64,000 bases of DNA from Neoscytalidium dimidiatum. Its lineage: Eukaryota > Ascomycota > Dothideomycetes > Botryosphaeriales > Botryosphaeriaceae. Where the stretch lies: the NCBI GenBank assembly GCA_037367355.1, contig CM074702.1:186001-250000 (forward strand), in the 5' to 3' direction. The position numbers and the translations under genes are program-made. Shown here piece by piece: positions 7,594 to 56,694 of this stretch (position 1 is the first letter of the stretch; every line of letters begins with the position of its first letter). The notes under the pieces were generated by a model. It was not told where the DNA came from and searched no databases. It saw nothing but the letters and a program-made list of their open reading frames with translations.

Positions 7594-9522
7594 ATGTTTG
7601 CCGCACTTTGCATTGTTCTCATTGCATACGGACTCTACCGTCTTACTCGCATAAGCTCGAGGCCACCTAACTTTCCACCAGGCCCGCCAACTGAGCCCAT
7701 CCTAGGAAATCTGCGACAGGTGGGTTGTAACAATCCATGATTGGATCAGATGAGCGACTACTAAGTAGTTCAGATACCATCCTTTTACGAAGAGCCGTTG
7801 TTCCAAGAATGGGCTGAGAAATATGGTCCTATCTTCTCCATTATGAAAGGTCCTTATCCCTACATAGTCGTCAATGAGAAAGACGCTGCCCACGAGCTTT
7901 TTAATAAGCTCGGGCAATATACCTCGTCGCGCCCGGACAGGCCAACCGAGTTCGTCTCCAGAGGTAATTATCAGCCAGTTGCAGCGAACGGACCTGTGTG
8001 GCGTGTTGCTCGACGTCAATGGCATTCGATGCTCAACGTATCCGCTGCCAAACAGTATCTCCCATATCAGGTACTGGAAGCGACAAAACTAATCTACGAC
8101 GTCTTAAATACACCTGAAGACTTTGGGAAACATATTCCAAGATACGGCAATTCTGTTGCCATGAGTATGGCAGCAGGTTATCGTGTTCCCACTTCAAACG
8201 ATCCTGTCGTCTCGACAATCCTCACATCGATGACCAACTGGGGGAGATACAACATATTAAGCAACTGGACAAACTTCTTTCCCATACTTTTCAAACTCCC
8301 TTCTTTTCTCCCTGGTCCTCGAAGGGATGGAGAGCGAGTCTTCGCCGATTATCAGAACAATGTCCTCCGGACGATCCGGGAAGCTCAGAACTCGAACCTA
8401 CCCTCATTTTATCAGGTCATCCAGGAAAACAAAGCAGCTTTGAACTTGAGTGATATGGAGGCGGTGAGCCTACCCGCTATCATGGCCGAAGTGAGAACTA
8501 CCAAGGCCCCTCACCTTTTACAATTACTGGCTGCTAAAAGCTTCAGGCTGGCACCGAGACGACTACTAACCTGATTAACGGCTGGGTTGCAGCTATGGCA
8601 CTGTTTCCTGAAGTGCAAAAGAAAGCTCAAGAGGGTGAGTTATACCGTATCCCCATCTGTTCCCGCTCTGACTGTTACAGAAATCGACCGAGTCATCGGC
8701 CCGGATCGCCTTCCACGGGAAGAGGATGCAGATAATCTCCTATACTTGAGGCAAGCCATACAAGAGTAAGTAACTTTGCAATCCGATGGCTGTATCATAA
8801 GCGATTCCGCGCGATAAACCGGTGCCGAGGAGTCAGAAGCAATGATGACTGCCAGTCTCCCTTTTGCGGACGAATCTGTGGGACTCGTTTGTAACCAGTC
8901 GACAAAGGCTGTACCATAATGGCAACTGCTAACGCCTCTCCCTCTTCATAGACTGCACCGATGGTATACGGTTTCGCGCTTTGGCGTGGCGCATGCAGCA
9001 ACCAAATCATTCGAATGGAGGGGTTATAAAATTCCTGAGGGAACCGGCTTGATTTTGAATGCCACAGCGATCCATCACGATCCAAAAGTGTACCCCCAAC
9101 CCCACGAGTTTTTACCCGAGCGGTGGGAAGGAAAACTGGGACGTACGGCTTCCTCGGAAGACTCAGTGGGTGAGGGCACGGAGCTTTTTGATTTCGGTGC
9201 TGGGCGTCGGATTTGTCCCGGCCAACATCTTGCCAGTCGGAGTATTTATCTCGCCGCGTCGCATGTTGAGAAAGCAAGAGATGAGTCCGGAAAGGAGGTC
9301 GACATCGACATTACGGCCATGAGACCCGCATTTTCTCGGACACTTCTGCCGTATAAGGTAAAGATCACGCCGCGCAGCGAGTCGAGGTCTCAGTTGATCC
9401 GGGAAACTTGGTCTCAAATGAAGGACGAGCTACTGACGCCGGATGAGCAATGGAAGAACGTTCCCGACTCGGTTCTGGGTTTAATTCAGAAGGCAAAATC
9501 TCAGCGAATTCAGCACAAGTAA
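7594..9522 (+). CDS. Cytochrome P450 monooxygenase, microsomal
   Basis: Five exons (7594-7719, 7774-8490, 8547-8634, 8681-8765, 8952-9522) give an uninterrupted 528-residue P450, a normal length for fungal class II enzymes. The N-terminus is a membrane anchor followed by the Pro-rich hinge (PPNFPPGPP). The oxygen-binding I-helix motif AGTETT is at residues 282-287, the K-helix ExxR at 339-342 (ELHR), and the haem loop FDFGAGRRICPG puts the ligand Cys at about 427. The charged C-terminal tail is somewhat long. Introns are 46-56 bases except the last (186 bases). It resembles the fungal P450s related to the O-methylsterigmatocystin oxidoreductase group, but the substrate cannot be told. It lies between an NmrA-like gene and a Baeyer-Villiger-type relic, all three plausible members of a former metabolite cluster. 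No inactivating change was seen. Confidence 0.9.
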
Positions 9523-11165: not shown

Positions 11166-11931
11166 ATTTCAATTGACTTCTTGTACCGGTAGGATTAGAA
11201 AAAGCTGATGTGCTTGAAATTGTCCGCTTAGTATCCTTGGAGATGGAGTTTACTTCGTAGCAGCAAGTCGAAAATTCCAAATCTTGAATTTTTGAAGTCT
11301 AAGAGTGCATGCAGGATTGCATGGAAATATGGCAGTCAATGCAGAAAGCTGAGCATAAACTCGAGGGTTATCTTTTGTGATAGGTGATTGTTTGATGGGG
11401 CCGTTGCGTGACGGCCAGGTCTGCGCGCCAATGGTCCTGTAGCGTCGATACTGCTTCTGCTCTTCATTTCTTCAGATTGTCAATCTGAGATCAGTCACTC
11501 GTCCGGCATCCAGTTCCACGTCGTTTCGATTGCCCCTTCTAGCCGTACATGTCCCAGCAACAGATCCAGTCCGGAGGACCGAAAAGAAAAATTGGAAACA
11601 CCATGGCGGACTGCATCCGACATCGTGCGTTGTCAGCGCAGACAATAATCCTCCCGCCGTAACATCAAGACGCCGGCCTCTCGGTGCTAAGCTCTCCGTG
11701 AAAACTTGATGAAGCGACGCGCCCGCGCGAACACGAGACAGTGCCGAACTAGCGATGCTCTTGTTTCCCTTGCGCTTCACACGAGAAAATGCGCTCCTGC
11801 ACTCCCTTCCACAACGACCTTCTGCCAGAGCCTGCTTTCTTCAAGAGTCTTCGTCAACTTATTGACGTTCTCCTCCTTCGTTCCACTTGCATCCACCTGC
11901 TCCCGTTAGTATGTCGCTCTCAACAAACAGG
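11166..11931. other. Intergenic, no gene recognised
   Basis: Lies between the monooxygenase relic and the 3' end of the kinase gene. Only short ORFs without family resemblance; part is likely the kinase 3' UTR. Confidence 0.4.
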
Positions 11932-12598
11932 TTATTTGACACTAACGTCAATCAAGACGCCACGCTGTCGATACACTTCCTCAACCGGCACAGTCTCCCT
12001 CTCGTATTCCGCGAAACGCCTTTCGAACTTCTCCTTGCTGTCATTGCTGTCCCGCGCCCGAGCTACATATCTAGCTTTCGCAATCTGCTTGGCAACCTGC
12101 AAAGACAGCACAATGTCCGGTTTCGTCTTCGCTCCCGCGCCGCCGCCACCGCTCGGAGCGAGTGGTAATTCGTCCTGGAAGGGCCACGAATTGAAGGATT
12201 CTAGCTGCTCGACACATCGCGGGAACCCATCGACCAGGATGCCTTGGGATTTTGGTGCGTCTACGTGGAGAGCGTCCTTGACCGCCTGGCGAATGAACGG
12301 ATTCAAATCGGCAGAGGCAAGAAATCCTTGATTATCCAGCTTGTCTTGGATTTGGATTGCGAGAGGTGTGGTGGAGTTGTCGCGCATCCAACTGCGGAGG
12401 CCATCGCCGACAGAGTAGTGCGTCAGGTTGTGTGCTTGTGCGAGATGAGTGCAGAGTGTTCCTTTTCCGGCGCCCGGTGGTCCTGAAAGCTTGTTGGAGT
12501 AGTGTCGGGGCAAGGAACTAGGGGGCCCAAAATCACGTACCCAGGACGAATATAATCGCAAAGCTGCGGGAAGCGGGGACGGTGGGAGGGGTCTCCAT
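11932..12598 (-). CDS. UMP/CMP-kinase-like nucleoside monophosphate kinase, divergent partner of the viperin gene
   Basis: Two exons, 12598-12541 and 12482-11932, separated by a 58-base intron with a GTACGT donor and TTTCAG acceptor, encode 202 residues; human CMPK1 is about the same length. The Walker A loop GPPGAGKGT is at residues 20-28, its first Gly codon split by the intron. DGFPR of the NMP-binding site is at 104-108. The region RARDSNDSKEKFERRFAEYE corresponds to the short LID and following helix of UMP/CMP kinases. The family moves phosphate from ATP to UMP, CMP or dCMP. A Gly/Ala-rich insert (SGGGGGAGAK) sits between the NMP site and the LID. The start ATG at 12598 places a normal strand-loop in front of the P-loop. 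It faces a viperin homologue across 232 bases, so it may supply CDP/CTP or act on the viperin product. A separate housekeeping URA6-type kinase presumably exists elsewhere; not checked. Confidence 0.85.
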
Positions 12599-12830
12599 GG
12601 TGTCGGCAGGCTAGGAAGTCAATAGTACGCGGATGGAGTTTAGGCATGCATGAGCGATGCCAGATCGCGTATCCGGCCCGGCATTGCCGCAGGCAGGCAC
12701 GTGCAGGCGCTTGGCCCAATGGCACTGTACCTTGACACGTACCGATCACCTACCTTTCCACATTCCGCGCCTTATTAAAGCAACCAAGGTTACACCTGCA
12801 CTCCAACGCACAGTCCGGCCGTGCCTAGTC
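12599..12830. promoter_or_regulatory. Shared divergent promoter of the kinase and viperin genes
   Basis: The 232 bases between the two start codons hold the promoters and leaders of both genes. Visible elements are a palindromic E-box CACGTG at 12698-12703, a CCAAT box at 12716-12720 (viperin sense), and an AT-rich TTATTAAAG at 12772-12780 about 50 bases before the viperin ATG. Short divergent spacing favours co-expression; the trigger is unknown. Confidence 0.6.
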
Positions 12831-13895
12831 ATGGCTATTTTTCCTCTTCTGGCGAATGTGCCGGCTGCCCTCTGCATCTGCGCCATTGTCCTCTACGCCG
12901 TTTTCACGTCCATCGGAACTAAGAAATGCTTTGACCCCAGCGCCATCGACAAGCCACCGGCGGACTCGTCGAAAGGACCGGACGCCCCGGTTTCCGTAAA
13001 CTACTTCCCGTCTCGGAAATGCAACTACACATGCGGCTTCTGCTTCCACACCGACACCTCTTCTTACGTCCTCCCTGTCGATGAGGCCAAACGTGGTCTC
13101 CGGCTGCTGAAAGAGGCCGGCATGCGCAAGCTCAACATCGCGGGCGGAGAACCCTTCCTCTACCCTCGCCTCCTCACCGAACTACTCCGCTACTGCAAGG
13201 AGGAGCTGGGCGTCGAGAGCACCAGCATCGTGAGCAACGGCAGCAAGATCAAGGAAAAGTGGCTGCGAGGAAATTGCCAGTGGCTCGACATTCTGGCCGT
13301 CTCCTGCGACTCGTTCGATCCGGAGACGAACAAAAAGATCGGACGCGGCGACGATGGAGGCAATGTGGCTCGGCTGTTTCGCATTGCCGAGTGGTGCAGG
13401 AAATACGGAATCAAGTTCAAGCTGAACACCGTCGTCAACACGCACAACTGGGACGAAGACATGGTCGCCAACATTGAACGCCTGGCGCCGTTCCGATGGA
13501 AGGTGTTCCAGTGCCTCATCGTGGCCGGCGAGAACGATGACGAGACGAGAAAGCGAGATGCGAGATCCTTCCTGGTGACCGACGAACAATGGCAAACATT
13601 CTGCGACCGGCATAAGCATATCCGATGCTACGTTCCGGAGGACAACAAGTCTATGGCGAGCAGCTACCTGCTTCTAGATGAGTACATGTGTTTCCTAGAC
13701 AAGGGCGAGGGTGTGATGACAAAGAGCGAGTCGATCTTGCAAGTCGGCGTCAGGGAAGCTATGAAGCAGGTCGTTTGGGACAAGACATCCTTCGTTGAAC
13801 GAGGCGGTATTTACGACTGGGGTAGATCGAACACGCAGCCGCAGAGTGTTTGTAGCGGCGGTGGTGGTGGTGGCAGGAAGGAGCTGGAATGGTGA
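12831..13895 (+). CDS. RSAD2-like: Viperin (RSAD2) homologue, radical SAM ddhNTP synthase
   Basis: An intronless 354-residue protein closely resembling animal viperin (361 residues in human). Residues 4-28 form a hydrophobic or amphipathic helix, as in ER/lipid-droplet-anchored viperin. The radical SAM cluster motif CNYTCGFC has Cys 64, 68 and 71, followed by FHTDTSS. Other viperin hallmarks are AKRGLRLLKEAGM, the SAM-binding NIAGGEPF, SIVSNGS, AVSCDSFD, KFKLNTVVN, FRWKVFQCL with Arg and Lys of the nucleotide site, LLLDEYM, and a C-terminus ending in Trp (KELEW), the residue that in animal viperin recruits the cytosolic Fe-S machinery. Viperins cleave SAM and abstract the 4'-H of CTP (or other NTPs in some homologues) to make the chain-terminating ddh-nucleotide. 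The first Met of this frame after the promoter begins the helix. An odd SGGGGGGR linker lies just before the tail. Antiviral or other roles in fungi are inference. Confidence 0.93.
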   Translation: MAIFPLLANVPAALCICAIVLYAVFTSIGTKKCFDPSAIDKPPADSSKGPDAPVSVNYFPSRKCNYTCGFCFHTDTSSYVLPVDEAKRGLRLLKEAGMRKLNIAGGEPFLYPRLLTELLRYCKEELGVESTSIVSNGSKIKEKWLRGNCQWLDILAVSCDSFDPETNKKIGRGDDGGNVARLFRIAEWCRKYGIKFKLNTVVNTHNWDEDMVANIERLAPFRWKVFQCLIVAGENDDETRKRDARSFLVTDEQWQTFCDRHKHIRCYVPEDNKSMASSYLLLDEYMCFLDKGEGVMTKSESILQVGVREAMKQVVWDKTSFVERGGIYDWGRSNTQPQSVCSGGGGGGRKELEW

Positions 13896-26580: not shown

Positions 26581-28423
26581 GTTGGCGATATTTCGGCAGG
26601 GGGAATGTTAAGATGCGCTGTCTGGACGAGGGACGACTTGCTGGACCTTCTTATAGCAAAGCGGCTCAGCCATCTCTTGGAAGACGTGAGTTTCCGAGAA
26701 GAAATTCCTCCAATGGGCATCTGACATCAGTAGACCGATGGCGAAAAATACTGTTTTCTCTTGCGGCTCATGACACGGCAAGGCCCGGATGCGGAGCCCC
26801 GCACTCGGAGGATTTCCCGAACAGGCAGCTGGGAGGACACACCCATGTTGGCGCCACGAGCCAAGTCACCGAGTACCCGGTTGATTGATCGCTGGTGTTT
26901 CTGAAGTGACATGCGGTTCCTCAGGGACGGCTAGCGGCGATCAATATGCAGGCGATCATCCTCATGCCGAACGGAATTCAAGCTTCCATCGTTTTTTTCT
27001 CGAAGGCTCACTCAGCAGCAGCGTTGGCGAGCTTCAAGAGGCTCGGCTAGCAAGGCGACGCCACAAACCCCACCGGCTGCATTTACCCGGACGCTAGCAA
27101 ACTGAGCGTCCGGTCATGGATGCTCGGCATGCCGTCTTGACCGTGCTCGTTCGGATTCGGCTCATTCCACGCGCAAACTGGCCTCCAGGCTGCTGCTGAC
27201 AGCCTTCTCCGGAGACCCGCAGAGGCTGACTGAGTCGTATGAGGGCATGGGGTCAATCTAAACACTGGTCTGCGCGAAGCCACGAGGCACCTTGGTACTG
27301 ATTTCTATCGTAAGCAGTCGCTTTGTTTGAATATGCAGACCGCCTTCCTGGATACATATAATTAGGGCTGGAATCATCTCTCCTCGAGGCCCGCCGGAGC
27401 CGAGAGAAGGAGCAACTCACTCCGACCCTCCCGTCACCAGTGTCTTATTCTCGGCTATTGGCTGCAATATGCTGCTGGCTCAAAATCCGAAGACCGTCGG
27501 TGACGTTTGCTGTGGCTCTGCATGATGATTGCGGATGAAATAAGGTAAGACAGGAAGCAGGCTGGTCCACCTCCTGAGAATTTTCTGGTAGATGGTAAAT
27601 TGGATGGTGTAGTAGGTTTTGGCCGCGACTTTCCAGACCCCAACCATGAGCTCTCCGCACATCCGACCCCCGGTAGCTGCCTCGGCTCAACACGGCGTCC
27701 AACCAGAAGGTCGACGATGCCGTCTCCGTCTCGGGCCCGACGGTGCAGAGATGGATGCGTAAGCAGATGCGCAAGAGACGTTCCTCGACGCCGGGCCGAC
27801 ACGGGTGACGGGGCGCGGGAGCAGCAGTCTCCGCCGTGTCTCCGCCGTGTCTCCGCGGAGAAGCAGCCCCTCAGACCTCCCAATTTTTCACTCTCCGCGA
27901 ATCCAACGACACCTATTCATACTGACTAACGACCAGCCCTTCCCGCCCACCCGTTCCGCACCGAAGATCGCGTAACTGCAATTGCTCCCATAGGCCTCGC
28001 TTGTTCAGCCACCGCGGCCGCCGTCAGGGCCCGCTGATTCAGCCCGTGTTTTGTGTTCCTGCACGCTTTATCCGTTGCCCATCATGGTCGGGATGCCCGA
28101 GCCCGCCAGCGCCCCGGCTTTTTCCCTTTGCTGGCCAACGTTGCGCCAGGTGGAGTGACACAACGGTCATTCGCAACTTGAGCCTTTTTTTTTTTTTTTA
28201 TTGTAGCCTGATTGCCGTGCTTTCGTTCTCCGCATGTCCGCGGAGACTTCACGGTTTATACAACTATAAGAAGTGGGAGAAGCCTCCCGAGGGGCGACTC
28301 CCATTACATCACCATACACCGCCCAATCAGCTAGCTGCACCGAGACCAAGCAGCCGCATCTCCTCAAGAGCGACTCTGATATTCCTATCCCCCTCGATCA
28401 GCACACCCGCGCCCGATCCCACC
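26581..28423. other. Intergenic between divergent galA and flavohaemoglobin genes
   Basis: 1.8 kb without a recognised gene. The ends serve as the two promoters. A run of 14 T lies at 28186-28199. The flavohaemoglobin frame stays open to 28001 but without domain features. Confidence 0.5.
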
Positions 28424-29668
28424 ATGCCTCTGACCCCGGAGCAGGCCAAAATCATCAAGGCCACCGTGCCCATCCTGGCCGAGCACGGCAACACCATCAC
28501 CACGCGCTTCTACCAGAACATGCTGCGCGAGAACCCGGACCTGAACGACATCTTCAGCAACACCCACCAAGCCACCGGCCGCCAGCCGCGCGCCCTGGCC
28601 ACGTCGCTGTACGCCTACGCCTCCAACATCGACGACCTGGGCGTGCTCAGCCCGGCCGTCGAGCTCATCTGCCAGAAGCACGCCTCGCTGTACATCCAGC
28701 CCGAGCACTACAGCATCGTCGGCACCTACCTGCTCGCCGCGATGAAGGAGATCCTCGGCGACGCCCTCACCCAGGACATCCACGACGCCTGGGCCGCCGC
28801 CTACTGGCAGCTGGCCAACATCATGATCGGCAAGGAGGCCGACCTCTACGCGCGCGCCGCCCCGTGGACGACCTGGCGCCCCTTCCGCATCGCGCGCAAG
28901 GAGCCCGAGTCGTCCGAGATCACCTCCTTCTACCTGACCCCGGTCGACCCGGCCCACGCGCCGCTGCCCTCCTTCCTGCCGGGCCAGTACATCTCGATCC
29001 GGACGCGCGTGCCGGGGCTCGCGCACCTGCAGGCGCGGCAGTACTCGCTGTCGGACGCGCCCCACCCGGACCACTACCGCATCAGCGTCAAGCGCGAAGA
29101 CGGCGACGGCGACGGCGACGGCCGCCCGGGCTGCGTGTCGACCGTCCTGCACGGCGACAGGCGCGTCGGCGACGTCCTCGCCGTCAGCCACCCGTTCGGC
29201 GACTTCTACTTCGACGCCGCGGCCGCCCCGCCCGACAGCCCCGTCGTCTTCCTGGCCGCCGGCGTCGGCCTCACCTGTCTGCTCGCCATCCTGAACAGCC
29301 TGACGCGCGAGCCGTCCGCCCGCCCGCTGCGCTGGATCCACGCCGCGCGCACCGTCCGCGCGCGCGCCTTCGACGAGCACCTCGGCCGGCTGGTGCGCGA
29401 GCGCCCCAACCTGCGGCGGAAGCTGTTCGTGTCCAGGGTCGCGGACGGCGACGTCCAGGGCGAGCATTACGACGTCGCCGGCCGGCTGGACCTGGGCAAG
29501 CTGGACAAGGAGCGCGACCTGCTCGTCGGCGACAGGACGACGCGGTATTTCGTGTGCGGGCCGGAGCGGTTCATGGTCGACATGCAGAGGGGGCTGAAGG
29601 GGCTGGGGGTCGATGAGGAGAGGGTGCATTTGGAGCTGTTTGGTACCGGCGGTGTTCCGAAGGCTTAG
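28424..29668 (+). CDS. yhb1: Flavohaemoglobin, nitric oxide dioxygenase
   Basis: A single-exon 414-residue protein. The globin domain (about 1-140) has distal-pocket Tyr 30 (RFYQNML) and Gln 54 (TGRQPRALA) and proximal His 86 (QKHASLYI). The reductase half (about 150-414) has the FAD motif RQYSLSD, the NAD-binding AAGVGLTCLLAIL (Cys where Pro is usual after GVGLT) and CGPERFM near the end. It oxidises NO to nitrate with O2 and NAD(P)H, protecting against nitrosative stress; fungi have cytosolic and mitochondrial forms. I chose the ATG at 28424 because it begins the globin fold (MPLTPEQAKII). The open upstream frame contains poly-Phe from a T run and is probably leader. A short Asp/Gly repeat (GDGDGDG) from repeated GGCGAC lies in the reductase domain. 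Confidence 0.95.
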   Translation: MPLTPEQAKIIKATVPILAEHGNTITTRFYQNMLRENPDLNDIFSNTHQATGRQPRALATSLYAYASNIDDLGVLSPAVELICQKHASLYIQPEHYSIVGTYLLAAMKEILGDALTQDIHDAWAAAYWQLANIMIGKEADLYARAAPWTTWRPFRIARKEPESSEITSFYLTPVDPAHAPLPSFLPGQYISIRTRVPGLAHLQARQYSLSDAPHPDHYRISVKREDGDGDGDGRPGCVSTVLHGDRRVGDVLAVSHPFGDFYFDAAAAPPDSPVVFLAAGVGLTCLLAILNSLTREPSARPLRWIHAARTVRARAFDEHLGRLVRERPNLRRKLFVSRVADGDVQGEHYDVAGRLDLGKLDKERDLLVGDRTTRYFVCGPERFMVDMQRGLKGLGVDEERVHLELFGTGGVPKA

Positions 29669-43123: not shown

Positions 43124-45053
43124 ATGTCGAAGGTGGTGCGCAGCGTGAAGAATGTCACCAAGGGTTACTCGAGCGTCGAGATCAAGGTGCGAAATGGTAT
43201 GCCGCGCTCCACCTCCCAGCCTCCGCGACTGCGCCCAGCTGATGCGATCCAGCCACGAGCAACGATCCTTGGGGGCCTGTCGGCAGCGACATGGCCGAGA
43301 TTGCCCAGTTAACCTTCAACAAGTAAGTCTCTGTTCCGCACGCCTGCCGGCCGCCCGCGGACGCGGCGGGCCCGTTGTAGAGAACGCTGATACATGGTCG
43401 TAGCAGTCAAGACTTCTACCAGATCATGGATATGCTCGACAAGCGCCTGAACGACAAGGGCAAGAACTGGCGCCACGTGCTCAAGTCGCTCAAGGTCCTC
43501 GACTACTGCCTGCACGAGGGCTCCGAGCTCGTCGTCACCTGGGCGCGCAAGAACCTGTACATCATCAAAACCCTGCGCGAATTCCAATACGTCGACGAAG
43601 ATGGCCGCGATGTTGGCCAGAATGGTATGCTATGCTGACCCGCCCCCGTCTCGTTGGCACCCCTCTCCTGAGCCGCTCTCGTGCTGACGCTATGTGTACA
43701 GTGCGCGTTTCCGCGAAAGAACTCACCTCCCTGATCCTCGACGAAGAGCGACTGCGCGCCGAGCGTGCCGACCGCAAATCATGGAAGTCTCGCGTTACTG
43801 GTCTGGAGGACTACGGCATGGGCGGCCACGGCAACGATGTCACCCGCCCGCGCCAGCAGCGCAGGCAACGGAACGAGGATGAGGATTTGGAGTACAAGTT
43901 GGCTATCGAGGCAAGCAAGAACGAGGCGGAAGAGGAGGAGCGCAGGCGCCGCGAACGCCAGGCGCGCGCGGAAGATGACGAGGACCTGCAGAAGGCAATC
44001 AGGCTCAGCCAGGAGGAAGAGGAGCTTCGCCGTAGGGAACTTGAGGAAGCCAATGCCAATAGCCTGTTTGACGACACGCCTGTTCAGCCCACCGTCGCGC
44101 AGCCAACCGGATGGAATCAGGGATACCAACAGCAGGGTGCCGTGGATTGGTTCGGAAACTTGGTCGACCAGCAGCAACCGCAAAACACTGGCTTCCTGAA
44201 CACTGCCTACTCCCAGCCGACTGGAATGCAACCCCAGCAGACCGGTTTCCAGAATGGATATGGATACAACGGTTACCAACAGCAGCCGACTGGATACGAT
44301 GCTTTTGGTCAACAGCAGAATTACCTGCAGCCCCAGCAGACTGCGTTCAACATGAACAACAACCCGTGGGGTCAGCAACCCAATGGCTTTGGCCAGCAAC
44401 AGCTCGTAGAGCAGCAGAACACCCTACAGCCAGGAAGCAACAATCCGTGGGCCTCTCAATCAGGCGCGCACACGACGGATTCGATCAAGCCCATGCCCAC
44501 AGGCTCCAACAACCCATTCGCTTCGTCCATCACCCGGCCTGCGACCGCTCAGCCTGTCCGTTCGACAGCCCCATCTCTCAGCACTCTCCAAGAGCAGAAG
44601 ACCGCCCAATTCAACAACAGTAACTCCGGTTTCAACCCGATCCGCGACTTCTCCGCGCCTTCGCAAAGCTTCCAAGCTCAGAGCCCGCAACAAGAGAAGC
44701 CCATGGATCCGCACACAGCACGCCTCAACGCCCTACTCGCTTCGGGAGAAGGCCAGGATACGTTCGGAAACGTCGGCAATCTCCGTATTCCTGCTCAGCA
44801 CACCGCTCCTGGAACCTTCGTCAACAGCGCGGGTGCCGGCATCAGCCGCCTGACTCAGCATCAAACCGGCAATAATCCTTTCCTGAACAGTCAATTTACC
44901 GGCATGCCGCAACAGACAGGTTTCACAAACCAAAACAGAATGATGCCGGCGCAGACGGGCCCCGCCAATGGATTTGGTGGCAATCCCTTCGGCGCTAGCT
45001 TTGGCCAGCAGCCACAACAGCAGCAGCAGCAAGGAAGTTTGATCGATTTGTGA
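43124..45053 (+). CDS. ent1: Epsin (Ent1/Ent2-like) endocytic adaptor
   Basis: Four exons (43124-43196, 43253-43322, 43407-43624, 43702-45053) give 570 residues. The ENTH domain occupies about 1-140, beginning SKVVRSVKNVTKGYSSVE and including SNDPWGPVGSDMAEIA and LDYCLHEGSELVV; it binds PI(4,5)P2 at the plasma membrane. Two ubiquitin-interacting motifs follow at about 179-195 (EDLEYKLAIEAS) and 212-228 (EDLQKAIRLSQEEE). The rest is Gln/Asn/Pro-rich with repeated QPTG/QQTG motifs, three NPF tripeptides (near 391, 512 and 548) for EH-domain partners, and the terminal clathrin box LIDL. All expected functional parts are present. It links ubiquitinated cargo and clathrin during endocytosis and contributes to polarised growth. 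The start gives the canonical amphipathic ENTH helix. Confidence 0.95.
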
Positions 45054-54219: not shown

Positions 54220-56580
54220 TTAAGCCTTGTTCTCAGAGGCATCGCCGTCCTTGGCAGCCTCCTTGGGGGCAGCGTTCTCATCCTGAGGAGTGCCGTCACC
54301 CTTGCTCTGGATGTACTCTTGGTACACACCCATCGCCTCGTCAACCTTCGCACGCAGAGCGTTCTCGTCAGAGGTGCTGCTATGAATTAGTAAGTGAGGT
54401 CATTACCGAATTTGCTGAGAAAGTGAAACTTACAGGTTAATCAGCTCAGCGTTGTCCATCTCCAAGAGCATACCGGTAATCTTGCCAGCAAGTTCAGGCT
54501 GCATGGCGTGGATTTTGGGGTACAGAGCCTCGCCGAGCATCTGCTTCTGTTGTGGCGGGGGAGCAGACTGGAGAGAGCTCAAGTCGATACCCTCACCAGG
54601 AGCGGGGCCCTGTCCGGGAGCAGGGCGGCCGCTGGGGAAGCCAGGCTGGTTGCGGTTGGCGCCGCCACGGTTGTTGGGACCGCCACGGCCGTTGCCAGGG
54701 ATCTGGCCGGCCATCTGGGGCATACCACCAGGTATAGGCATGCCAGGCATAGGGCCACGGCTAGCACCACGGCCACCCATAGCAGCTTGCTGAGCGGCGA
54801 GCATCTGAGCATACGCAGGGTTGTACTGCGGCGGAATGCCACCAGGGAGAGGAGCACCAGGGAAAGGCATGCCCATGGGAGGAATCTGCTGGGCGTTCGG
54901 GCCGCCACGGCCACCCTGGATGGGCATGCCCTGAGGGAAACCGGCACCACGACCACCGGCAGGCATACCCTGAGGGAAAGGCATCTGGCCACGGCCGCCC
55001 ATGAAGGGCTGCTGGCCAGGGCCAAAGAACATCTGTGGCTGAACGAACTGCTGAGCAGGCATGCCAGCGGCGGCAGCAGCCTGCTGCATGCGGATCTGGT
55101 TGCGGGCCTGGATGGTGGCCTCGAGCTGGCTTTTGCGGACGTCCTTACGCTGGGCGAGGGCGACGTAGAGCGGCTTGCCGTTGACCATCTTCTGGTTCAT
55201 CTCAGTGACGGCCTTGGTAGCTTCGTCGGGGTTGCTGAAGCAAACGAAACCGAAACCCTTGCTCTTGCCCAGAATCTTCTGCTCGCCCTTGATGGTGACC
55301 TTGTCCATCTCCTTGGTGAGCTTGTCGACACCGTCCTTCTTCTCATCCTCGGAACCCGACTTCTCAGGCTCCTTCTCCTCTTCCTTCTTTTCCTCCTCCT
55401 CTCCTTCCTTCTGAGGGGACTCGCTGCCAGAGGAGCCAACGGGCTGGGTATCGCGCATGACCTTGGCAGAGGTGATTGTACCGAAAGGAGCGAACATGTC
55501 GCGCAGCTTCTCGTCATCGACATCGTCATGGAGATTCTTGACATAGAGGTTGACGCCCTGGTACTTGGACTGCTTCTCAGCGCGGGCAGCCTCGTACTGC
55601 TTGCGCAGCTCCTCCTCACGCTCGTGCTTCTTTTGCGCACGACCGACGTACAGCTTCTGGCCCTTCCACTCATTGTCGTTCAGCTCCTCGACAGCCTTTG
55701 CGGCACTCTCGTGCTTGACGAAGTTGACGAAGCCGAAACCGCGGCTCTTGCCAGTCTCGTTGTCGTGTGCGAGCGAAGCAGAGGTGATCTGGCCGTACTT
55801 CTCAAAGAGCTCACGGAACTCGTCATCGGTGACGTCCAGGTCGATGTTCTTGACGTAGACGTTGGTGAAGTTGGCCTTCATCTCCTCGAACTTGCTCATG
55901 CGGTCCTTCTTGGGAATGTGGTGGCCAACGAAGACCTTCTTCTCGTTCAGCAGCATACCATTAACAGCCTTGATGGCGTTGTTAGCGGCCTCAGCAGTCT
56001 CGTAGTGAACGAAGCCGTAACCCTTGGAGTTGCCGTTCTCGTCCTGAGCGACCTTGCAGCTGAGGATGTTGCCGAAGGCAGCGAAGGTGTCGTGAAGGGC
56101 CTTGTTGTCGATCGCGGAGTCGAGGTTCTTGATGAAGACGTTGCCCTGGCCAGTCTTGCGGAGAGCGGGGTCGCGCTGGGACCACATAATACGGCAAGGC
56201 TTGCCCTTGATCAGGGTGTAGTTCAGCTCCTCGAGGGCCTTCTCGCCGTCCTCGGAGCTGTTGTAGTTCACGTAGGCGTAACCAAGCGAGCGACGGGTGA
56301 CGGCGTCACGGCAGACACGGATCGAGGCGACCTGGCCGATGGAGGAGAACAGCTCGAAGAGCATGGCCTCGGTAACAGAGGGGTCAAGCTCGCCGACATA
56401 GAGCGAGGCGGAGTTCTGGTGGGCGGCGGAAGGAGCGGCAGAGGTGGGCGTGGGAGCCTCGGCGGCGCCTGCAGAGCCAACGCTGGTGTTAATGGCAGTA
56501 CCGTTCGCGTCGCCGGCGACGGGCGAGGTCGGGTTGGCGTCAGCGCCAGGAGCAGTGGCGTTGGCAGCTTCTGCAGACAT
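54220..56580 (-). CDS. pab1: Polyadenylate-binding protein Pab1
   Basis: Two coding exons (56580-54434 and 54379-54220; 54-base intron with TACTAAT branch site) give 768 residues. Four RRM domains lie at about 58-136, 146-223, 239-316 and from 342, each with RNP motifs such as LYVGELD, VFIKNLD, VYVKNID and LYVKNLH, and KGFGFVCF in the last. RRM4 is split by an acidic Glu/Lys-rich insert of about 70 residues ([19 protein letters not shown]), as in other mould Pab1 proteins. A Met/Gly/Pro/Gln-rich linker and the C-terminal MLLE domain follow (about 680-745, with [21 protein letters not shown]). The protein coats poly(A) tails and acts in translation and mRNA stability. An intron also appears to lie in the 5' leader (56694-56593). 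Start is the Met of MSAEAAN. Confidence 0.97.
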
Positions 56581-56592
56581 TTTGCTGGTGTT

Positions 56593-56694
56593 CTGCGCGC
56601 GGGTTAGCGGGCTGCGGCGGCAGCAAGGCGGCACACCAGGGTCTTCGCGGGCGGCACGCGAGGACGCGAGTCTGGCGTGGTGGAGGGAGCTCAC
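56593..56694 (-). other. Probable 5' UTR intron of pab1
   Basis: In the sense of pab1, a GTGAGC donor at 56694 and a GCGCAG acceptor ending at 56593 enclose 102 bases, 12 bases upstream of the start codon. Confidence 0.6.

What the first reader, a model, noticed from the sequence alone, without database searches (positions are those of the whole stretch)
11932..13895. Divergent viperin and UMP/CMP-kinase pair in a mould
A near-complete viperin homologue (radical SAM cysteines, conserved nucleotide-site stretches, C-terminal Trp) faces a pyrimidine nucleoside monophosphate kinase with 232 bases between starts. In animals viperin neighbours CMPK2, which feeds CTP to it; bacterial viperins are often near nucleotide kinases. 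Here the kinase is of the UMP/CMP family instead, so the pairing looks recreated with another kinase. A two-gene ddh-nucleotide defence or signalling module in fungi is the inference; I do not know of this exact arrangement being described.
Basis: partly seen in the sequence, partly recalled or inferred. Interest (0 to 1): 0.92.

Follow-up and report, generated by a model that had tools for sequence, protein, structure and literature searches.

The report
Fungal viperin paired with dedicated kinase
A mould carries the antiviral enzyme viperin back to back with a nucleotide-phosphorylating enzyme of its own kind, and the two genes sit side by side in a number of distantly related fungi too, which suggests a two-part antiviral system that pairs viperin with a different kinase family than the one known from animals and bacteria.

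Summary
The pair is real. A complete viperin (12831-13895 with stop, +) lies head to head with a three-exon kinase gene (12598-11777, -), 232 bases between starts. The stated end 11932 falls inside the kinase's second intron. The kinase is not the genome's only one: a URA6 and two adenylate-kinase-like genes lie elsewhere. Linkage recurs: 34 of 119 listed viperin clusters share their longest contig with a hit of this kinase, against 2 of 119 for URA6; locus tags are consecutive in 9 of 11 comparable genomes. 'UMP/CMP kinase' is not upheld: 86.7 bits against a cut-off of 207.6 (own URA6: 238.6), own clade (100/99.9), fold ties with UMP/CMP and adenylate kinases. Catalytic residues are kept. It is no CMPK2; kinases found beside prokaryotic viperins were thymidylate-kinase family (4 of 17 loci). 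Best reading: a dedicated, probably pyrimidine, NMP kinase that feeds or recycles nucleotides for viperin. Substrate and antiviral role are untested. Viperin-kinase linkage as such is known; a 2024 paper I could not open may already cover fungi. New variant of a known kind.

The parts
12831..13895 (+). viperin gene, single exon, 354 aa, stop codon included
   Evidence: translation; NF038283 and TIGR04278; PDB viperins E 6.1e-99 or better
12837..12893 (+). hydrophobic N-terminal segment of viperin (residues 3-21), possible membrane anchor
   Evidence: mean hydropathy 2.39 over 19 residues; a segment of 1.6 or more in 14 of the 18 homologues I picked from the 120 listed
13020..13043 (+). radical SAM CX3CX2C motif of viperin (residues 64-71)
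   Evidence: invariant in 16 aligned rows; PF04055 73.5 bits
12541..12598 (-). kinase exon 1 (58 b), start codon at 12598
   Evidence: homologues align from Met1
12483..12540 (-). kinase intron 1 (58 b, GT..AG)
11947..12482 (-). kinase exon 2: P-loop, NMP-binding region, DGFPR, short LID
11897..11946 (-). kinase intron 2 (50 b, GT..AG, contains TACTAAC); the finding's end 11932 lies here
11777..11896 (-). kinase exon 3 (120 b with stop), C-terminus ..VDASGTKEEN..AHFLV
   Evidence: a similar C-terminus in homologues such as P0002, P0004, P0008
12599..12830 (.). 232-b shared intergenic region, candidate bidirectional promoter
   Evidence: promoter function inferred, not tested

Best explanation
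This is a two-gene nucleotide-analogue module. Viperin (shown by sequence; activity inferred from the family) uses SAM radical chemistry to turn a pyrimidine ribonucleotide triphosphate into its 3'-deoxy-3',4'-didehydro form, a chain terminator for viral RNA polymerases. The neighbouring gene makes a dedicated NMP kinase of the ADK superfamily, distinct from the cell's URA6 and adenylate kinases, which raises the supply of CDP/UDP (then CTP/UTP through the general NDP kinase), and may also re-phosphorylate ddh-NMP released during RNA turnover. The shared 232-base intergenic region would co-express both. Shown here: identity of both proteins, intact catalytic residues, paralogy to housekeeping kinases, linkage recurring across fungal classes. 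Inferred: substrate, co-expression, antiviral role against mycoviruses.
For: Viperin identity. Linkage: 34 of 119 viperin clusters share the longest contig with a kinase hit, 8 of these on contigs of 3.4-11.5 kb; control with URA6 2 of 119, both on contigs over 2 Mb; control with shifted lengths 2 matches in 40 shifts. Consecutive locus tags in 9 of 11 same-genome pairs, including Chlorociboria B7494_g4878/4879 where the kinase is only 34% identical. Dedicated gene: own clade 100/99.9, with URA6, ADK1- and AK3-like genes elsewhere in the genome. Active site kept in the listed homologues, of those with a residue at the site: K26 74 of 75, R49 82 of 82, R108 120 of 120, R161 119 of 119, R163 116 of 118, R175 116 of 119. 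Pyrimidine leaning: the position that is Thr in AK1 (STGD) is V in 72 of 82, else I, L or A, never T; eukaryotic viperins are said to be limited to CTP or UTP derivatives (passage of PMC11249213), and UTP is named a putative substrate of a fungal viperin (passages of PMC8124187). No second PF02223 gene that could be a CMPK2: one locus in the genome.
Against: Gln112 at the base-recognition site is shared by URA6 and AK1, unlike the Asn of human and Dictyostelium UMP/CMP kinase (alignments), so AMP is not excluded. Best NCBIfam score is adenylate kinase (99.7 bits) ahead of UMP-CMP (86.7), both below cut-off. Linkage is not universal: Diaporthe batatas has the genes 1,094 tags apart on one contig and one F. 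oxysporum 7 tags apart. 85 of 119 viperin clusters and 84 of 119 kinase clusters showed no shared contig, which may be sampling (only the longest contig of a cluster is shown) or true absence. No expression or infection data.
Confidence: 0.6

Rival explanations
1. The kinase acts after viperin rather than before it: it is a salvage enzyme that phosphorylates ddh-CMP/ddh-UMP (or protects the host by controlling the ddh-NTP pool), not a supplier of CTP/UTP.
For: The cell already has a housekeeping URA6 for ordinary UMP/CMP, so a second, strongly diverged kinase (stem length 1.96 in the tree) with a LID two or more residues shorter than URA6's in the alignment and, in most near homologues, an insertion around residues 117-138 would make sense if its substrate is unusual.
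Against: No direct evidence; divergence may equally reflect fast evolution of a defence gene. CMPK2 in animals, the known analogue, is thought to feed CTP (recalled).
Confidence: 0.2
2. The kinase is an AMP kinase whose link to viperin is energy or SAM-cycle related, or is unrelated to ddh-nucleotide chemistry.
Against: V/I/L/A instead of the AK1 Thr in the NMP site in all 82 rows that have a residue there; ADK1- and AK3-like genes are present elsewhere.
Confidence: 0.15
3. The two genes are not functionally coupled; they stay together because they were spread together between fungi by horizontal transfer or because a short bidirectional promoter is hard to break.
For: Viperins of Xylariales are about as close to the window's as those of other Botryosphaeriaceae, although URA6 gives 87-93% for the named Botryosphaeriaceae and no named Xylariales among its 120 listed hits; the trees mix classes.
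Against: Intact active sites in both proteins, the specialised kinase clade, and adjacency also in a distant Leotiomycete pair speak for selection on the pair. Transfer itself is not proven: AU p 0.0486 for one Sordariomycete clade with Diaporthe, 0.194 without; Dothideomycetes 0.0661; the window falls, weakly (41/53), with the other Botryosphaeriales.
Confidence: 0.05

Closest known systems
Animal RSAD2 (viperin) - CMPK2 neighbour pair
   Same: Viperin next to a nucleotide monophosphate kinase (neighbourhood recalled); in the review PMC11249213 (passages) viperin activity is said to depend on CMPK2.
   Different: CMPK2 belongs to the thymidylate kinase family (recalled); the fungal partner is ADK family (PF00406 81.8 bits; PF02223 14.6 bits, below the cut-off of 27). 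The kinase was therefore recruited separately (inference).
Prokaryotic viperins with a kinase (PADLOC pVip, 'Viperins associated with kinases', 'Viperin-kinase fusion')
   Same: Window viperin matches the three PADLOC viperin models; the review says 15% of bacterial viperin genes lie next to a CMPK2-like kinase gene.
   Different: In 17 prokaryotic viperin-like loci read here, 4 had a nucleotide-kinase neighbour that I identified, all Thymidylate_kin, none ADK. The window kinase itself has only weak PADLOC matches (15.7 bits or less).
Fungal viperins of Trichoderma virens (PDB 6B4C) and Thielavia terrestris (TtRSAD2)
   Same: Same enzyme; window viperin matches 6B4C at E 2.3e-106.
   Different: A kinase neighbour is not mentioned in the passages seen; their gene neighbourhoods were not examined here.
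URA6 / UMP-CMP kinase
   Same: Same fold and corresponding catalytic residues.
   Different: 25% identical to the genome's own URA6, separate clade, score far below the family cut-off.
Shomar et al. 2024, viperin evolution across the tree of life (not held)
   Same: Abstract, as I recall it, reports eukaryotic viperins linked to nucleotide kinases.
   Different: Could not be checked whether the fungal ADK-type partner is in it.

Membership tests
Viperin | Curated viperin model above cut-off | tested here: met
   NF038283 248.4 bits, cut-off 180; TIGR04278 387.5, below its exception cut-off 450
Viperin | CX3CX2C cluster motif and C-terminal Trp | tested here: met
   C64, C68, C71, W354 invariant in 16 rows
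Viperin | Production of ddh-NTP | not testable with these tools
   needs enzyme assay
ADK superfamily (PF00406) | Pfam gathering score | tested here: met
   81.8 bits for the 202-aa form, cut-off 26.8
UMP-CMP kinase family (TIGR01359) | Curated cut-off 207.6 bits | tested here: not met
   86.7 bits for the 237-aa protein; the genome's own URA6 scores 238.6
UMP-CMP kinase family (TIGR01359) | Groups with URA6/CMPK in a tree | tested here: inconclusive
   own clade 100/99.9; joined to the URA6/CMPK side 90/64; AK1 side not rejected, AU p 0.415
Adenylate kinase (TIGR01351, TIGR01360) | Curated cut-offs 168 and 284.1 bits | tested here: not met
   99.7 and 89.0 bits
CMPK2 / thymidylate kinase family (PF02223) | Pfam gathering score 27 | tested here: not met
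   14.6 bits
Viperin-kinase module | Recurrent adjacency of the two genes | tested here: met
   34 of 119 clusters on shared contigs, consecutive tags in 9 of 11, control 2 of 119
Viperin-kinase module | Head-to-head orientation conserved | not testable with these tools
   seen in the window only; no DNA of the other fungi was available
Viperin-kinase module | Functional dependence of antiviral output on the kinase | not testable with these tools
   needs deletion and LC-MS

The most novel reading that the evidence does not exclude
Fungi built, independently of animals and bacteria, a viperin-kinase immune module around a dedicated kinase clade of the ADK superfamily, and this two-gene unit has been passed between fungal classes as a mobile antiviral cassette; the kinase may act on ddh-nucleotides themselves.
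Probability: 0.3. Interest if true: 0.8.

Novelty: new variant of a known kind. Interest (0 to 1): 0.55.

Why it matters
It would show that viperin's partnership with a nucleotide kinase arose at least twice with different kinase families, which argues that the pairing is biochemically needed rather than inherited. It would also give fungi a nucleotide-analogue defence besides RNA interference, testable in ordinary yeast hosts, and a new NMP kinase clade to screen for ddh-nucleotide chemistry.

Tried and rejected
Chance adjacency: rejected by the contig and locus-tag evidence with two controls. Kinase = the genome's only UMP/CMP kinase: rejected. Kinase = CMPK2 homologue: rejected by family score; one PF02223 locus in the genome, on another contig. 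Viperin-kinase fusion in fungi: none of the 120 listed viperin hits (of 1,444) carries PF00406 among its precomputed Pfam domains; four long ones (P0161, P0185, P0191, P0230) were printed and I saw no kinase stretch by eye. Viral relatives of the viperin: none confirmed in viral contigs with a single-sequence query, which finds close relatives only; the best viral fold matches of the kinase model are named adenylate or UMP-CMP kinases of giant viruses. Horizontal transfer between classes: suggested by identities, not established by AU tests. Literature: ten full-text searches (listings capped) listed no paper that by title or start of abstract describes a fungal viperin-kinase pair; the paper most likely to, Shomar et al. 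2024, and Bernheim et al. 2021 (PMC7610908) and Lachowicz et al. 2021 (PMC8672371) are not held. Papers seen only as passages: PMC11249213, PMC10732462 (plus its section 9), PMC12988326, PMC12114427, PMC12737575, PMC12911909, PMC8124187. Window neighbours: Pfam at E 0.001 on 17 of the 30 ORFs of 220 aa or more plus one shorter ORF showed no further nucleotide-metabolism family; exons of spliced genes can be missed that way.

Full report
The observation. Window 12831-13895 on + is an uninterrupted viperin gene, 354 residues and a stop. It passes the NCBIfam viperin family model NF038283 (248.4 bits, cut-off 180), scores 387.5 bits with TIGR04278 (cut-off 450, kind 'exception', not reached) and matches nine distinct solved viperin sequences at E 6.1e-99 or better. 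The cluster cysteines C64, C68, C71 and the last residue W354 are invariant in 16 aligned rows. On the other strand, with 232 bases between the ATGs, lies a kinase gene. Its coordinates needed correction: exons 12598-12541, 12482-11947 and 11896-11777, introns of 58 and 50 bases, 237 aa. The end given in the finding, 11932, is a stop codon inside intron 2. Exon 3 gives the C-terminus that most aligned homologues have; one homologue, P0006, ends as the unspliced reading does and may carry the same gene-model error (inference). Splice sites are predicted.

Which organism. The genome has 43.76 Mb in 40 contigs. Its URA6 is 93% identical to that of Macrophomina and Botryosphaeria, 91% to Neofusicoccum and 87% to Diplodia; Aplosporella (77%) and Saccharata (74%) follow with the bulk of other Dothideomycetes. 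So it is a member or close kin of the Botryosphaeriaceae (ranks recalled).

Is the kinase the only one? No. PF00406 finds matches at four places: C5:2011k, C4:4031k, C10:1590k and the window. Read exon by exon, the C5 gene is URA6-like, the C4 gene ADK1-like and the C10 gene AK3-like; the C5 gene is confirmed, the other two names rest on my reading and on their place in the tree. PF02223, the thymidylate kinase family to which CMPK2 belongs (recalled), has one locus. Viperin has one locus. Only the best candidates are scored in these searches.

Is the adjacency seen elsewhere? One search found 132 kinase homologues (120 listed) and one search found 1,444 viperin homologues (120 listed). Among the listed ones, leaving out one of each without a contig (both labelled Quercus suber, probably a fungal contaminant), 34 of 119 viperin clusters have the same longest-contig length as a kinase hit; on the kinase side it is 35 of 119. 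Eight of these contigs are 3.4-11.5 kb. Shifting lengths by 1 to 20 in either direction gives 2 matches in 40 shifts. The same comparison with URA6 (118 lengths; two of its 120 rows have no contig) gives 2 of 119, both on contigs over 2 Mb. This undercounts, because a cluster shows only its longest contig; equal length is taken as the same contig. In 11 same-contig pairs both genes carry tags of one genome; 9 are consecutive: Monosporascus ibericus, M. sp. 5C6A, M. sp. CRB-8-3, Diplodia seriata, Diatrype stigma, Daldinia eschscholtzii, Fusarium poae, Fusarium sp. FIESC RH6 and Chlorociboria aeruginascens. Against: Fusarium oxysporum LZL87 (7 tags apart) and Diaporthe batatas (1,094 tags apart on one contig). 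The Recurvomyces pair carries tags of two isolates and was not counted. These genera belong to Dothideomycetes, Sordariomycetes and Leotiomycetes (recalled). Orientation in these genomes could not be read.

Viperin details. The N-terminus is hydrophobic (19-residue mean 2.39), and so are 14 of 18 homologues that I picked, at 1.6 or more, although the sequence there is poorly conserved. A membrane anchor, as in animal viperin (recalled), is likely. Fungal viperins were studied before: Trichoderma virens (6B4C) and Thielavia terrestris, for which UTP is named as a further putative substrate (passages of PMC8124187). A review says that eukaryotic viperins are limited to CTP or UTP derivatives (passages of PMC11249213).

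Comparison with prokaryotes. A scan of genome contigs kept 80 of 128 confirmed loci; I took the 17 at E 3e-33 or better (L020-L035, L056) as viperin-like and left the other 63 (E 6e-12 or weaker by the listing, apart from a few near 1e-12) aside. In ORFs of 100-450 aa of these 17 loci a P-loop pattern occurs eight times: four small kinases (L022, L025, L026, L027), two larger ORFs (L025, L027) not scanned, and two that look like chance, one of them in a viperin ORF. The four kinases are Thymidylate_kin by Pfam. A profile of A2 gave one weak match, 15.2 bits, to the L025 one. So no ADK-type partner was seen in this small set; flanks were at most 3 kb.

Evolution. Trees of 27 rows (the window and 26 named fungi; Daldinia loculata and Orbilia were included although their two genes were not shown on one contig) mix fungal classes in both genes but are poorly resolved (6 and 4 starred of 24 inner branches). 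The concatenated tree (25 rows, without Chlorociboria and Recurvomyces) groups Orbilia, Zopfia, Byssothecium and Diaporthe (99/97) and places Xylariales, Botryosphaeriales and Lepidopterella together (86/89); within that the window falls with the other Botryosphaeriales, weakly (41/53). Viperins of Xylariales are 82-85% identical to the window's at near-full coverage (Daldinia vernicosa 86% over 90%, one 328-aa Monosporascus protein 79%); those of Botryosphaeriaceae are 87% (B. dothidea), 81% (Diplodia, Macrophomina), 86% over 77% (Lasiodiplodia) and 76% for a shorter B. dothidea protein. This suggests transfer of the pair between classes, but holding Sordariomycetes together is rejected only marginally (p 0.0486) and not without Diaporthe (p 0.194), nor are Dothideomycetes (p 0.0661) or Xylariales (p 0.485) rejected as clades. 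I leave it as suggestive.

Mechanism. I take the kinase as viperin's partner that supplies or recycles pyrimidine nucleotides (0.6), with a salvage role on ddh-NMP (0.2), an AMP-related role (0.15) and no coupling (0.05) as rivals. Shown: identities, active sites, linkage, separate paralogues. Inferred: substrate, joint regulation through the 232-base region, antiviral function.

Known or new. Linkage of viperin to a kinase is known in bacteria (passages of PMC11249213; PADLOC models) and in animals (recalled). Here the partner is another kinase family. Ten full-text searches listed no description of the fungal pair, but Shomar et al. 2024 is not held and, as I recall its abstract, reports linkage of eukaryotic viperins with nucleotide kinases; fungi may be in it. 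Hence: new variant of a known kind, interest 0.55.

Noticed in passing
7798-8574 and 8986-9522, +: Two ORFs that together look like one cytochrome P450 gene split by an intron (PF00067).
   Followed up: no
28001-29668, +: Flavohaemoglobin-like ORF: Globin plus oxidoreductase NAD-binding domain.
   Followed up: no
54433-56694, -: Poly(A)-binding-protein-like ORF: five RRM stretches and a C-terminal MLLE domain.
   Followed up: no
43632-45053, +: ORF with a DUF1720 match (26.9 bits, cut-off 21.4).
   Followed up: no
G000:C8:349714-350637 and other contigs: Piwi-domain matches at five places (six rows) in the genome, so RNA interference is probably also present.
   Followed up: no
P0114 and P0234 (Chlorociboria aeruginascens): Consecutive kinase and viperin genes with a kinase only 34% identical to the window's; the LID differs (R..KGREADD), so the linked clade is diverse.
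   Followed up: partly
L022, L025, L026, L027: Bacterial viperin-like loci with a thymidylate-kinase-family gene beside viperin.
   Followed up: partly
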